A DNA stretch of 64,000 nt, taken from assembly GCA_016841945.1 (NCBI GenBank), contig JAENYC010000014.1, positions 1-64,000 of the forward strand. Direction: 5' to 3'. Below the pieces are notes generated by a model, which did not search any database, was not told the origin of the DNA, and saw only the letters and a program-made list of their open reading frames with translations. This document shows, one piece after another, positions 28,282 to 32,640 of the stretch. The stretch is from Haloplasma contractile (lineage in GTDB: Bacteria > Bacillota_I > Bacilli_A > Haloplasmatales > Haloplasmataceae). Every line of letters starts with the position of its first letter. The stretch's first letter is position 1. Both the position numbers and the translations under genes were made by a program.

Positions 28282-29727
28282 TTATTTTAGTGAATGGCTA
28301 TAAATCATCTCATTTTTTAAATCCCATAGTTTTTGTGATAAATCGACATAATATTCATGTGGATTTTCAAACCGTAAAACAGAATCCCAAAGTCTAGTTA
28401 ATTCTTCTTGGCAACGATTTCTAATGTCTTCAATACTTGGCGTTTGATAAACACATTTCCCATTTTCAAATATTGGCACTAACATTTTCTTTACTGTAAA
28501 ATCCTTTAATGTTTTACGTTTCCATGGGTTATTAGGGTCAAAAATCTCATATTCTTGATCCTTTAAAATTATCTCTTCATTTAATGTTATGACATCTGCT
28601 AGTGCTTTATTTGTTTTCTTACTAAAAAAGCGATAGATTTGTTTAAATCCTGGATTCGTTATTTTAGATACATTTTCACTAATCTTAATCTTAGGAATTA
28701 ACTTGCCTTTTTCTTCAATTGCGACTAGTTTATACACCCCTCCGAATATAGGTGATGATTTAGACGTGATTAGCCGCTCTCCTACACCAAATAAATCTAT
28801 CTTAGCGCCCTGTATGAGTAATTCTCGAATAATATATTCATCTAATGAGTTAGAAGCAACAATCTTACAATCAGGATAGTTCGCTTCATCTAACATCTTT
28901 CTTGCTTCCTTTGATAAATAAGTGATATCCCCACTGTCAATTCTAATGGCTTTAGGTCTATATCCCTTAGGCACTATGACTTCATTAAATGTTTTAATCG
29001 CATTTGGAACACCGGATTTTAATACATCATAGGTATCAACTAGTAATGTACAATTTTCTGGATAAATACGCGCATAAGCTTTAAACGCACTCAATTCTGA
29101 ATCATACATTTGTACATAACTATGGGCCATCGTACCAAGCGCTGGAACTTTTAACATTTTATCCGTTAATGTACAGGATGTCCCAACACACCCACCAATA
29201 TAAGCTGCCCTAGCCCCATAAATCGCACCATCATAGCCCTGAGCTCTTCTACTACCAAATTCTAAAACTGCCCGATTACTAGCTGCACGAACAATTCTAC
29301 TAGCCTTGGTCGCAATTAAACTCTGATGGTTAATAGTTAATAAAATCATGGTTTCAATTAATTGCGCTTCAATAATGGGGCCTTTTACGACTAGTATTGG
29401 CTCATTGGGAAAAATAGGCTCTCCTTCTTCAATTGCCCAAACACTGCAACTAAATGTAAATTCTTTTAAATATGTTAAGAATGCTTCACTAAATATCTTC
29501 TTACTTCTTAAATATATTATATCCTCATCATGAAAAGATAAATCTTTCAAATACTCAATCACTTGTTCTAGACCTGCCATAATCGCAAAGCCCCCATTAT
29601 CAGGAACCTTTCGAAAAAACATGTCGAAATAGGCAATGGTCTCTTTTTTATCATCTTCAAAATATCCATTTGCCATCGTTAATTCATAAAAATCAGTTAA
29701 TAATGTTAAATCCCGTTTAATATTCAT
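28282..29727 (-). CDS. pncB: Nicotinate phosphoribosyltransferase
   Basis: This 481-residue enzyme turns nicotinate and PRPP (with ATP) into nicotinate mononucleotide in the Preiss-Handler route. Family stretches are visible: LLTDFYELTMANGYF at the N-terminus, FGSRRAQGYDGAI, GTMAHSYVQMY, and IRIDSGDITYLS with the conserved phosphate-binding region. The length agrees with the long bacterial form. It lies 11 bases after pncA in the same operon. Confidence 0.95.
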   Translation of the reverse strand: MNIKRDLTLLTDFYELTMANGYFEDDKKETIAYFDMFFRKVPDNGGFAIMAGLEQVIEYLKDLSFHDEDIIYLRSKKIFSEAFLTYLKEFTFSCSVWAIEEGEPIFPNEPILVVKGPIIEAQLIETMILLTINHQSLIATKASRIVRAASNRAVLEFGSRRAQGYDGAIYGARAAYIGGCVGTSCTLTDKMLKVPALGTMAHSYVQMYDSELSAFKAYARIYPENCTLLVDTYDVLKSGVPNAIKTFNEVIVPKGYRPKAIRIDSGDITYLSKEARKMLDEANYPDCKIVASNSLDEYIIRELLIQGAKIDLFGVGERLITSKSSPIFGGVYKLVAIEEKGKLIPKIKISENVSKITNPGFKQIYRFFSKKTNKALADVITLNEEIILKDQEYEIFDPNNPWKRKTLKDFTVKKMLVPIFENGKCVYQTPSIEDIRNRCQEELTRLWDSVLRFENPHEYYVDLSQKLWDLKNEMIYSHSLK

Positions 29728-29738
29728 CCTATTCTCTC

Positions 29739-30404
29739 CTAAACGATTTCTTTTACCACTTCTATATCATTCATTATCATATTATATAATCCAAAAACAT
29801 GCATTAAATCACCATCATGGGTATCATGGTCATATGTATTCACCCCATTCATAGGAACAATAATACGGCTATCTTGATTTAAACGATTAAAATGAGTCTT
29901 TAAAGATAAAACAAATTGTAAAACACAAATATCAGTACAATCACCAACGACAATAAATGTATCAATCGTTTCATTTTCTTTTAACCATTTTTGAAATGAG
30001 GGTTCAATAAAACCATTTGTTGAATTCTTTTCTATTAATTTATAACCACCAATGGATTTTAGTTCCTCAATTACTTCTTTTTCATTTGTTCCTTCTACAC
30101 AATGAGGTGGAAAAGACTTAAATTCCCTTGAATCTTTATTATGACAATCAGCAAAAACGAGTTTTTTAATGCTTAATTCTTCACATTTGTAAGATAATTT
30201 AACAACCTCAGGGACTATACTGGCAATGCGTTGACTTTGTAAAGCACCTTTTTTTACAAATCCATTGACCATATCAATCATAACAAGTACTGTCTTATCC
30301 TTATCTAAATGATTAAAATTAACAGACTTTAGTTCGTTCAATTGTTTAAATATCTTTTCTAAAATGGCTTCTGCAGTCTTTAAAAACACAAACTCATTTT
30401 TCAA
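29739..30404 (-). CDS. pncA: Nicotinamidase-like isochorismatase-family hydrolase
   Basis: This 221-residue cytoplasmic hydrolase should convert nicotinamide to nicotinate. Catalytic Asp is in VMIDMVNGF (about residue 43), Lys is expected in IEKNSTNGF, and the nucleophilic Cys lies in VVGDCTDICVLQF. DCHN (about 92) and the C-terminal MNGVNTYDHDTHDG fit metal ligands. Its position between nrtR-like and pncB supports the nicotinamidase role. The start overlaps the stop of the upstream Nudix gene by 4 bases (ATGA), so translation is coupled. Confidence 0.9.
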   Translation of the reverse strand: MKNEFVFLKTAEAILEKIFKQLNELKSVNFNHLDKDKTVLVMIDMVNGFVKKGALQSQRIASIVPEVVKLSYKCEELSIKKLVFADCHNKDSREFKSFPPHCVEGTNEKEVIEELKSIGGYKLIEKNSTNGFIEPSFQKWLKENETIDTFIVVGDCTDICVLQFVLSLKTHFNRLNQDSRIIVPMNGVNTYDHDTHDGDLMHVFGLYNMIMNDIEVVKEIV

Positions 30405-31282
30405 ATTAGTTTCTCCTTTCTATTTGGATTAAATCGATATAATTTCGATGGCCGATGACCTTTATCTTTTGTATAAGCATTAGTCTCAATCACCATGTCA
30501 GATACTTTACGTCTAAAATTCGCTTTTAATAACTTCTTATCTAATATAACCTCATATACTTGTTGTAATTCAGTTAAGGTAAATTCCTCAGGCATTAAAT
30601 TAAATACAATATCTGTATATTCAATCTTATTTCTTAACCGTTCAATACCATATGAGATAGCTAGTGCATGATCAAATGCGATTAGATGAGTAGAAACGAT
30701 TTTCCTTTTAACTGAAGTATTTCTTCCATGGGCTTCTATCATCACATGAAGGGTCGTTTCTAAGACAATCTCCTCACATACAAGATTTAATTGATATATC
30801 TTCTTCTTCCTATAACCATTATCCTTTTTTTTCTTTTCTTCATCTATCAATTTGTATTTTATCTCAAACCATTTCGCATCTTTTGCATCATCACTTGCTT
30901 TAACTTCAAACTGCATACTATCTATTAATGACATGTAACAACAACTGATGACTCTAGTTCTAGGGTCACGTCCTACATCTCCATAGGTATACAATTGTTC
31001 AAGATAAATATCTTCAATATTGGTTTCCTCTTTTAATTCTCTTCTTGCCGCGTCTTCTAAATTCTCATCCATATAAATAAAACCACCTGGAATTGCCCAG
31101 TAATCCTTAAAAGGATGTTTTTTTCTTTTAATTAATAATACTTTAAATACCTTTTCAGGTAGTTTTCTATAATTACTATTTTCCTTGTTTATAACGGTAT
31201 AAACCAAAGTATCCACAGTAACAGAGGGTCTATCATATTTTGAGGGATCATAGTTTTTTAAAAATGTTTGTTCACTATCCAT
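30401..31282 (-). CDS. NrtR-like Nudix regulator of NAD metabolism
   Basis: This 293-residue protein combines a Nudix domain with a C-terminal winged helix. The Nudix box is clear: a GGF start, then ENLEDAARRELKEETNI (about residues 78-94); the last Gly is replaced by Thr. The C-terminal region, FTLTELQQVYEVILDKKL then NFRRKVSD (about 230-270), is the DNA-binding wing found in NrtR proteins, which repress NAD genes and are released by ADP-ribose. It leads the operon nrtR-pncA-pncB-PNK-nitroreductase. It could still hydrolyse a nucleotide. GGAGAG precedes ATG 31282. Confidence 0.85.
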   Translation of the reverse strand: MDSEQTFLKNYDPSKYDRPSVTVDTLVYTVINKENSNYRKLPEKVFKVLLIKRKKHPFKDYWAIPGGFIYMDENLEDAARRELKEETNIEDIYLEQLYTYGDVGRDPRTRVISCCYMSLIDSMQFEVKASDDAKDAKWFEIKYKLIDEEKKKKDNGYRKKKIYQLNLVCEEIVLETTLHVMIEAHGRNTSVKRKIVSTHLIAFDHALAISYGIERLRNKIEYTDIVFNLMPEEFTLTELQQVYEVILDKKLLKANFRRKVSDMVIETNAYTKDKGHRPSKLYRFNPNRKEKLI

Positions 31283-31365: not shown

Positions 31366-31388
31366 AAACCTCAAATAAATTGAGGTTT
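31366..31388. terminator. Intrinsic terminator of rsgA
   Basis: AAACCTCAA and TTGAGGTTT form the stem, which overlaps the rsgA stop codon. A T-run follows on the minus strand. Confidence 0.88.
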
Positions 31389-32451
31389 ACCAAATTTCTT
31401 TATTTTTATATTTTGTAAACTTGGCTAATTCTTTTCCACGACGCTTTTGCTCATTTCGTAATCTCTGTTGATTTTTAGCTTCAACATAAGCCGCTTCCTT
31501 TTTTAATTTTATATAATTTTTAAAACGTTTTTCATCTAAAGTACCTTCTTCTATTGCGGCCCTAACAGCACAACCAGGTTCTGTCAAGTGTTTACAATCT
31601 TTAAATCGACAATTTTGTGCAAGTGTTTCAATATCACTAAACGTTTCATCAACACCATCACTACCTTGCCATAAAGATACTTCTCGCATTCCTGGCGTAT
31701 CGACTACCATACTACCATTCGGTAATAAAACAAGCTCTCGATGGGTTGTTGTATGTCTCCCTCTATCATCTTGTGCTCTCACTTCTTTGACTTTTAATAC
31801 TTCTTTCCCTGCAAGACGATTAACAAGGGTTGACTTTCCCACACCTGATGAGCCTAATAAAGCAACCGTTTTTCCTGGTTTAAAATATTCTTTCACTTGT
31901 TCTAAACCATCACCAGTTAAAGCACTGACTGCACACACATCAACACCTGGGGCACTATTTCTTACTTCATACACTTTTTCTTCTACATCATCACATAAAT
32001 CAGATTTACTTAATATGACAACAGGGATTGCGCCACTTTCCCAAGCTAGTACTAAATATCGTTCTATTCTTCTAAGATTATAGTTCTGATTTAAAGAACT
32101 AAATATAAACACCGTATCAAAATTAGCAGCAATTACTTGTTCAACTGTTTCATCACCACTTACCTTACGAGAAAATTTAGATTTTCTAGGTAATACAGTC
32201 TCAATAATTCCCTTTTTTTCATTTGGTAATTTCTCTAAAGCAACAAAATCACCTACGGCAGGAATCATACCACTATCTAACCCATGTTTATATTTTCCCA
32301 TTAATTCAGCTTGTAATAAACCTAGATCAGTTACAACTTTAAAATATTTTCCATGTTCTTCAATTACACGACCTGGCAAAAGGACATCGTTATTTTTTTC
32401 TTTAAATGCTTTCTCAAAAAATTGATGATAACCATATTGGTTTAAATTCAT
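31387..32451 (-). CDS. rsgA: Ribosome small-subunit biogenesis GTPase RsgA
   Basis: This 354-residue GTPase checks 30S maturation. The domain order is an N-terminal OB-fold (about 20-90), then the circularly permuted G domain. The permutation is visible as G4 (ILSKSDL) preceding G1 (GSSGVGKSTLVN, about 201-212) and G3 (DTPGMRE). The C-terminal zinc site is CRFKDCKHLTEPGCAV. GGAGG precedes ATG 32451. The 190-base leader upstream holds a promoter, an 11-codon leader ORF and a terminator-like hairpin, so expression is probably controlled by attenuation. Confidence 0.95.
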   Translation of the reverse strand: MNLNQYGYHQFFEKAFKEKNNDVLLPGRVIEEHGKYFKVVTDLGLLQAELMGKYKHGLDSGMIPAVGDFVALEKLPNEKKGIIETVLPRKSKFSRKVSGDETVEQVIAANFDTVFIFSSLNQNYNLRRIERYLVLAWESGAIPVVILSKSDLCDDVEEKVYEVRNSAPGVDVCAVSALTGDGLEQVKEYFKPGKTVALLGSSGVGKSTLVNRLAGKEVLKVKEVRAQDDRGRHTTTHRELVLLPNGSMVVDTPGMREVSLWQGSDGVDETFSDIETLAQNCRFKDCKHLTEPGCAVRAAIEEGTLDEKRFKNYIKLKKEAAYVEAKNQQRLRNEQKRRGKELAKFTKYKNKEIW

Positions 32452-32476
32452 TGTTTCCTCCTAATTTAAGATAATA

Positions 32477-32528
32477 ATTAAAAATCACAAAAAGCATAAC
32501 CTTTTTTGTGGTAAATAGGTTAAACCTG
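32477..32528 (-). promoter_or_regulatory. Attenuator-like hairpins in the rsgA leader
   Basis: On the minus strand AGGTTTAACCT (32518-32528) is followed by CACAAAAA, a loop containing AAGGTTATGC, TTTTTGTG (32486-32510), then ATTTTTAATT. The second hairpin resembles a terminator. AACCT of the first element can instead pair with AGGTT in the terminator loop. That gives two exclusive structures, as expected for transcription attenuation. Confidence 0.5.
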
Positions 32529-32539
32529 TTTTTTAATAT

Positions 32540-32575
32540 TTAGTATAAAACCACCATTAAATTATTATCAATCAT
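32540..32575 (-). CDS. Short leader peptide ORF upstream of rsgA
   Basis: ATG 32573-32575 opens an 11-codon frame (MIDNNLMVVLY, then TAA). It stands 7 bases behind a near-perfect AAAGGAGTGA site and about 30 bases after the transcription start. A strong ribosome site on so short a frame, followed by alternative hairpins, fits a translation-sensing leader like those of antibiotic-inducible ribosome-protection genes. No homologue is known to me. Confidence 0.5.
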   Translation of the reverse strand: MIDNNLMVVLY

Positions 32576-32611
32576 TATACATCACTCCTTTTGCCTTTTT
32601 TATACACAACG

Positions 32612-32640
32612 ATTATATATGAAAATAGGTGATTAGTCAA
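32612..32640 (-). promoter_or_regulatory. Promoter of rsgA
   Basis: TTGACT (32635-32640), exact 17-bp spacer, TATAAT (32612-32617). Confidence 0.85.

What the first reader, a model, noticed from the sequence alone, without database searches (positions are those of the whole stretch)
32477..32640. Leader-peptide attenuator upstream of rsgA
A consensus promoter, an 11-codon frame with a very strong ribosome site, and two exclusive hairpins (one terminator-like) precede a ribosome-assembly GTPase. This arrangement is known for antibiotic-inducible ribosome-protection genes. I do not know it for rsgA, where it would let stalled or slow ribosomes raise RsgA.
Basis: partly seen in the sequence, partly recalled or inferred. 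Interest (0 to 1): 0.65.

Follow-up and report, generated by a model that had tools for sequence, protein, structure and literature searches.

The report
Ribosome-sensing leader before an RsgA paralogue
A short leader that probably senses stalled ribosomes precedes not the normal ribosome-assembly gene rsgA but an extra copy of it; the same type of leader, built from different sequences, sits before this extra copy in many bacteria, which suggests an unrecognised factor switched on when protein synthesis is blocked.

Summary
The promoter, the 11-codon frame with a strong ribosome site and the two overlapping hairpins are present. Promoter and ribosome site are strongly conserved in the one congener. 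The hairpins are weak in this AT-rich leader, and its whole-leader fold is no better than chance.

Two things change the picture. First, the gene is not housekeeping rsgA (305 aa, elsewhere in the genome) but a 354-aa paralogue from a separate RsgA clade (tree support 100/100) found from Bacillota to Bacteroidota, Streptomyces and Methanolobus. Second, its Bacillota and Fusobacteriota members often have a leader uORF (25 of 42 against 13% in shuffles; housekeeping rsgA 5 of 21 against 14%). In one group of 11 leaders the late uORF segment can pair either with the uORF's own ribosome site or with a segment beyond a covarying terminator. The peptide is not conserved: the RNA segment occurs in all three frames.

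This is the layout of vmlR-type attenuators; the gene situation resembles hflXr, a duplicated ribosomal GTPase. A WblC- and tetracycline-induced RsgA copy is published for Streptomyces coelicolor. I infer that ribosomes stalled early in the uORF raise the RsgA paralogue. Induction and function are untested.

The parts
32635..32640 (-). -35 hexamer TTGACT
   Evidence: 11 of 12 consensus with the -10, 17-nt spacer, identical in G001
32612..32617 (-). -10 hexamer TATAAT
32585..32592 (-). Shine-Dalgarno sequence of the uORF (AAAAGGAG)
   Evidence: inside a 20-nt invariant block between window and G001
32540..32575 (-). uORF, 11 codons plus stop, MIDNNLMVVLY (G001: MIEKHVKVILV)
   Evidence: same length and stop position in G001, residues differ
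32498..32521 (-). candidate hairpin AACCT..AGGTT (weak), overlaps the terminator-like hairpin
   Evidence: -3.0 kcal/mol, 30 of 200 shuffles as stable; the G001 counterpart AACCTATgaATAGGTT is strong
32486..32510 (-). candidate terminator-like hairpin CACAAAAA..TTTTTGTG
   Evidence: -5.1 kcal/mol, 7 of 200 shuffles as stable; not listed by the terminator scan
32480..32484 (-). T-run after that hairpin
32457..32462 (-). Shine-Dalgarno sequence AGGAGG of the RsgA paralogue
31387..32451 (-). RsgA paralogue, 354 aa, RsgA GTPase domain
31366..31388 (-). intrinsic terminator after the paralogue gene, so that it is probably a single-gene unit

Best explanation
The element is the leader of a single-gene transcription unit that encodes an inducible RsgA paralogue, and it works as a ribosome-mediated attenuator. 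Ribosomes load on the uORF as RNA polymerase transcribes the leader. If the ribosome runs through, or if none loads, the late uORF segment is covered or is held by the uORF's own ribosome site; the leader terminator then forms, or the paralogue's ribosome site stays closed, and expression is low. If the ribosome is held at the start or first codons by an inhibitor or another translation defect, it keeps the uORF ribosome site occupied and leaves the late segment free, which then pairs downstream and opens the way to the gene. The peptide sequence does not matter in the best-resolved group; early stalling does. The product would be a GTPase acting on 30S subunits or stalled ribosomes under translation stress, much as HflXr acts on 70S ribosomes. 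Shown: uORF, ribosome site and promoter in the window and congener; uORF enrichment, alternative pairings, terminator and frame-independence in other members of the clade; the separate clade. Inferred: the direction of the switch, induction by inhibitors, the protein's function, and that this window's AT-rich leader uses the same switch.
For: Separate paralogue clade, 67 sequences against 22 housekeeping ones, 100/100; own genome and Listeria hold both kinds. Strict-SD ATG uORF in 25 of 42 Bacillota and Fusobacteriota paralogue leaders against 13% in dinucleotide shuffles; housekeeping rsgA 5 of 21 against 14%. The uORF's ribosome site pairs with the end of the uORF at p<=0.05 in 18 of 35 leaders, where about 2 are expected, including separate lineages of the clade (group A, group B, Tumebacillus, Brevibacillus). 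In group A, RNAalifold finds this pairing plus a terminator, with double-sided changes, and the late segment also pairs with a segment past the terminator at p<=0.05 in 11 of 11 canonical leaders. The late segment lies in three different frames (MKTKHFIDKRRYITTLK, MEKFILFKSEDTSLHKKV, MNEIKSTRKLKMHHCTK), so RNA rather than peptide is conserved. Same anatomy as vmlR: anti-antiterminator over the uORF, antiterminator, terminator, late pairing that frees the gene's ribosome site (PMC9226507). Tetracycline and retapamulin hold ribosomes at start codons (PMC12121999). In S. coelicolor one of two RsgA paralogues (SCO6149 against SCO5211) is WblC- and tetracycline-dependent (PMC7157823). A model of group A leaders has as its best hit in this genome (E 0.057) the leader of a ribosomal-protection-type EF-G relative.
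Against: In the window leader no tested pairing exceeds shuffles and the terminator-like hairpin is weak. The group A model does not match the window leader. Not every paralogue has a uORF leader: strict criteria miss 14 of 42, and L013, L014 and the Lysinibacillus copy L087 appear to have none; paralogues of other phyla show 6 of 25 against 9% expected. The match to the ribosomal-protection leader has a modest E-value and was not repeated in other members of the family. Many loci come from related genomes, so counts overstate independent events. No expression data. Identity of SCO6149 with this clade was not tested directly.
Confidence: 0.68

Rival explanations
1. The uORF and leader are real, but control in this genome is purely translational or by coupling: uORF translation keeps the paralogue's ribosome site open or closed, without premature termination.
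For: The window hairpin is a weak terminator. Group B leaders (L063, L070-L078) lack a terminator and show GGAGGG in the uORF, CCCTCC after its stop and the gene's GGAGG as alternative partners. In L011 the uORF overlaps the gene start.
Against: The window leader has a hairpin with a T-run in the place where group A has a strong terminator, and G001 keeps AGGTTAT and TTTTTGTG blocks there.
Confidence: 0.3
2. The leader does not sense antibiotics but 30S assembly or initiation capacity: slow or defective 30S subunits dwell on the uORF start and raise an assembly factor, as feedback.
For: The gene product belongs to the RsgA family, which acts on 30S subunits. The central pairing involves the uORF's own ribosome site. 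vmlR is induced by ribosome assembly defects without antibiotic (PMC9226507).
Against: The housekeeping rsgA, which would be the natural target, does not show the enrichment. The paralogue is scattered and present in a minority of genomes (12 of 392).
Confidence: 0.2
3. Chance: an AT-rich intergenic region with a fortuitous short frame and hairpins; the leader is an ordinary 5' UTR.
For: The window leader's fold is not better than shuffles.
Against: Conserved SD block, promoter and frame in G001 against diverged flanks; enrichment across the clade; alternative pairings in relatives.
Confidence: 0.08

Closest known systems
vmlR leader of Bacillus subtilis (ABC-F resistance factor; PMC9226507)
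   Same: uORF with SD, early stalling as trigger, anti-antiterminator over the uORF, terminator, and pairing in read-through RNA that frees the gene's ribosome site; here best seen in group A leaders
   Different: The regulated gene is an RsgA paralogue, not an ABC-F protein; uORFs are 10-28 codons, not three; induction not shown; weak structures in the window itself
hflXr of Listeria monocytogenes with its rli80 leader (PMC6310831)
   Same: A second copy of a ribosome-associated GTPase, separate clade in Firmicutes, short uORF and attenuation; the housekeeping copy is not so controlled
   Different: HflX family, not RsgA; the hflXr uORF has a macrolide-type RLR motif, whereas the group A uORF peptides share no motif
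toiL uORF upstream of topAI in E. coli (PMC12121999)
   Same: uORF that responds to several antibiotic classes, with tetracycline and retapamulin stalling at the start codon
   Different: Rho-dependent termination within a toxin gene; different bacteria and target
WblC/WhiB7 regulon of Streptomyces coelicolor (PMC7157823)
   Same: One RsgA/EngC paralogue (SCO6149) is tetracycline- and WblC-dependent while the other (SCO5211) is not
   Different: Control by a transcription factor, not by the leader of the gene itself; membership of SCO6149 in this clade not tested here

Membership tests
Ribosome-mediated attenuator (vmlR / hflXr type) | Short translated-looking uORF with strong SD in the leader | tested here: met
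   (window, G001 and 25 of 42 clade leaders)
Ribosome-mediated attenuator (vmlR / hflXr type) | Intrinsic terminator between uORF and gene | tested here: inconclusive
   Clear and covarying in group A; only a weak hairpin with T-run in the window; absent in group B
Ribosome-mediated attenuator (vmlR / hflXr type) | Mutually exclusive pairings that a stalled ribosome would switch | tested here: inconclusive
   Strong in group A and several other lineages; not above shuffles in the window
Ribosome-mediated attenuator (vmlR / hflXr type) | Induction by ribosome-targeting inhibitors dependent on uORF translation | not testable with these tools
   needs reporter or Term-seq experiments
Peptide-specific stall leader (RLR and similar) | Conserved peptide motif in the uORF | tested here: not met
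   Group A segment read in three frames; window and G001 peptides differ at 7 of 11 residues
RsgA family | Circularly permuted RsgA GTPase domain with zinc knuckle | tested here: met
   PF03193 184.7 bits over cut-off, TIGR00157 173.6 over cut-off 100; C-x4-C-x-H-x5-C present in the sequence and aligned to E. coli RsgA
RsgA family | N-terminal OB-fold domain | tested here: inconclusive
   PF16745 22.4 bits, below its cut-off of 27
Housekeeping RsgA orthologue | Groups with the single-copy RsgA of relatives | tested here: not met
   own genome has another, 305-aa, copy in the housekeeping clade
Known Rfam leader families | Match at gathering score | tested here: not met
   no leader family matched in the window region or in 19 relatives

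The most novel reading that the evidence does not exclude
The RsgA paralogue is the founding type of a widespread family of inducible translation-stress or antibiotic-protection factors that act on the small subunit, controlled by its own attenuator in Bacillota and Fusobacteriota, analogous to HflXr for the 70S ribosome. Its leaders, unlike in sequence, share a peptide-independent design in which the uORF's own ribosome site is one arm of the switch.
Probability: 0.4. Interest if true: 0.8.

Novelty: new variant of a known kind. Interest (0 to 1): 0.6.

Why it matters
Ribosome-mediated attenuators usually mark genes that help cells survive ribosome-targeting drugs. Finding them repeatedly before one clade of RsgA paralogues, but not before housekeeping rsgA, makes a testable case that this clade is an inducible stress or resistance factor that annotation hides under the name of a ribosome-assembly gene. 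It would be a small-subunit counterpart of HflXr and would explain why many bacteria carry two rsgA genes.

Tried and rejected
Rfam at E up to 5 on 3 kb around the leader and at gathering score on 19 relative loci: no leader family. Pairing of the window uORF SD with its own late codons, and of the late uORF with the downstream leader or the gene's SD: not above shuffles. Pairing of the segment behind the group A terminator with the gene's SD: significant only in L082, L066 and L083, so not claimed in general. Pairing of the late uORF segment with the terminator's 3' arm: plausible by eye but p<=0.05 in only one (L081) of 11 canonical leaders, so classical antitermination is not proved; two further group A relatives, L015 and L019, show neither this nor the downstream pairing. 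Shared leader with ribosomal-protection genes: one hit in the own genome, no leader on the relative's copy and no hit in G001, so kept only as a hint. Most weak hits of the RNA model elsewhere were coding sequence or ordinary terminators. Literature: no paper found linking rsgA with Term-seq; the two papers holding both rsgA and leader peptide were not read in full but are reviews on other topics; the 2016 Term-seq study is not in the library.

Full report
What was claimed. A consensus promoter, an 11-codon frame with a strong ribosome site and two exclusive hairpins upstream of rsgA at 32477-32640, - strand.

Check of the sequence. The promoter TTGACT-17-TATAAT (32640-32612) matches 11 of 12 consensus bases. 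The frame ATG..TAA at 32575-32540 encodes MIDNNLMVVLY, with AAAAGGAG about 9 bases before the start. The candidate terminator CACAAAAA..TTTTTGTG (32510-32486, T-run 32484-32480) and the overlapping AACCT..AGGTT hairpin (32521-32498) are there, but they are weak: -5.1 and -3.0 kcal/mol, equalled by 7 and 30 of 200 shuffles. The terminator scan does not list the first, and the whole leader folds no better than shuffles. In the single congener G001 the promoter hexamers and spacing, a 20-nt block around the SD, the start codon and the uORF length and stop are conserved while the upstream flank differs. There the corresponding helices are nested, with a strong AACCTATgaATAGGTT hairpin, so the proposed exclusivity is not conserved.

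Which gene. The genome has two RsgA proteins: one of 305 aa on contig C11 and the 354-aa protein of the window. A maximum-likelihood tree of 89 sequences puts the window protein in a clade of 67 paralogues separated from 22 housekeeping RsgA with 100/100 support; the Listeria material has members on both sides. The paralogue clade reaches Tumebacillus, Brevibacillus, Listeria, Peptoclostridium, Acetoanaerobium, Cetobacterium, Bacteroidota, Methanolobus, Streptomyces, Vibrio and Leptolyngbya. In the window's own phylum sample 12 of 392 genomes have it at E<=1e-50. The protein keeps the RsgA GTPase domain above cut-off and the zinc knuckle; the N-terminal OB domain scores below its cut-off.

Leaders across the clade. 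I extracted the leaders of 42 Bacillota and Fusobacteriota paralogues. With a strict SD definition 25 have an ATG uORF of 5-40 codons, against 13% in dinucleotide shuffles; 21 housekeeping leaders give 5, against 14%. Several leaders missed by the strict rule have uORFs with a slightly different SD (L070-L078, L086), while L013, L014 and L087 seem to have none. Paralogues of other phyla give 6 of 25 against 9%, with no recurrent form.

Architecture in the best-resolved group (group A: L016, L017, L066-L069, L079-L083). The uORF ribosome site (for example GGAGTGATGTA) is complementary to the end of the uORF (TACATCACT). RNAalifold on 11 leaders predicts this helix together with a GC-rich terminator followed by TTTTTG; 5 of 16 pairs have changes on both sides. 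The same late segment is complementary to a segment just past the terminator in 11 of 11 at p<=0.05. So the late segment has two exclusive partners. It is read in three different frames, for example RRYITT, SEDTSLH and KMHHCT, and in L068 it lies beyond the stop codon; the RNA, not the peptide, is conserved.

Other lineages. The pairing of the uORF ribosome site with the end of the uORF reaches p<=0.05 in 18 of 35 leaders, where about two are expected. It appears with different sequences in Tumebacillus (TTAAAGGAG with CTCCTTTAA), Brevibacillus (GCAAAGGAG with CTCCTTTGC) and group B. Group B (L063, L070-L078) also has GGAGGG within the uORF, CCCTCC after its stop and the gene's own GGAGG, and no terminator: a translational version. 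Near relatives share ancestry, so these counts are not independent events.

Window leader against relatives. The window and G001 share the SD block AAAGGAGTGATGTAT with group A, but none of the tested long-range pairings in them beats shuffles, and the group A covariance model does not reach its leader. For this genome the switch is therefore inferred from family membership and position.

A hint from the same genome. The best hit of the group A model in the window's genome (E 0.057) is a leader, uORF MRKINNEVKRN, in front of a 647-aa EF-G relative that scores best against the tetracycline ribosomal-protection family (552 bits, below the curated cut-off of 775). This gene has a second uORF, MKTRTNFLYKNYMKGWLNN, with AAAGGTTGG, CCACCTTT and the gene's AAAGGAGG as possible alternative partners, as in group B. 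A relative's copy has no such leader and G001 lacks the gene, so this is a hint only.

Mechanism. Combining these, a ribosome held at the start or early codons would occupy the uORF ribosome site and free the late segment, which would then pair downstream; a ribosome that runs through, or no ribosome, leaves the gene off. This is the logic described for vmlR, where read-through RNA also refolds to free the gene's ribosome site (PMC9226507), and for hflXr, where a duplicated ribosomal GTPase of Listeria is induced by lincomycin and erythromycin through a uORF attenuator (PMC6310831). Tetracycline and retapamulin stall ribosomes at start codons (PMC12121999), which is the kind of stall a peptide-independent uORF could report. 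Because the segment behind the terminator cannot itself stop the terminator from forming, and pairing with the terminator's 3' arm is not significant, the exact antitermination step is open.

Function of the paralogue. In Streptomyces coelicolor the RsgA paralogue SCO6149 is tetracycline- and WblC-dependent while SCO5211 is not (PMC7157823). Streptomyces plasmid homologues fall inside the paralogue clade, but SCO6149 itself was not available, so this link is a lead. No published study of this clade's leader was found in the library.

Verdict. Induction and function remain to be shown.

Noticed in passing
G000 contig C2:21808-23896 (L124, L129, L133), outside the window: EF-G relative closest to tetracycline ribosomal-protection proteins with two successive uORF leaders, one like group A and one like group B.
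   Followed up: partly
window 28282-31282, - strand: Apparent NAD-salvage cluster: NrtR-type Nudix regulator (30401-31282), an isochorismatase/nicotinamidase-like protein (29739-30404) and nicotinate phosphoribosyltransferase (28282-29727); only the first was checked against profiles.
   Followed up: partly
L067 about 1490-1530: The paralogue's frame has no ATG, GTG or TTG at the expected place after a strong SD; an ATA or ATT start is possible, or a sequence error.
   Followed up: no
L087 (Lysinibacillus fusiformis plasmid pMGMM7): The RsgA paralogue is directly followed by a fosfomycin-resistance-type gene fosM and shows no uORF leader.
   Followed up: no
phage records OR847338, OR848819, OR848648, OR846881: Records named Listeria phage carry the Listeria rsgA copies and look like fragments of the host chromosome.
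   Followed up: no
group A leaders (L066-L069, L079-L083): The terminator tail TTTTTGTNTGC is more conserved than a terminator needs, so part of it may have a second role, for example in RNA polymerase pausing or the downstream pairing.
   Followed up: no
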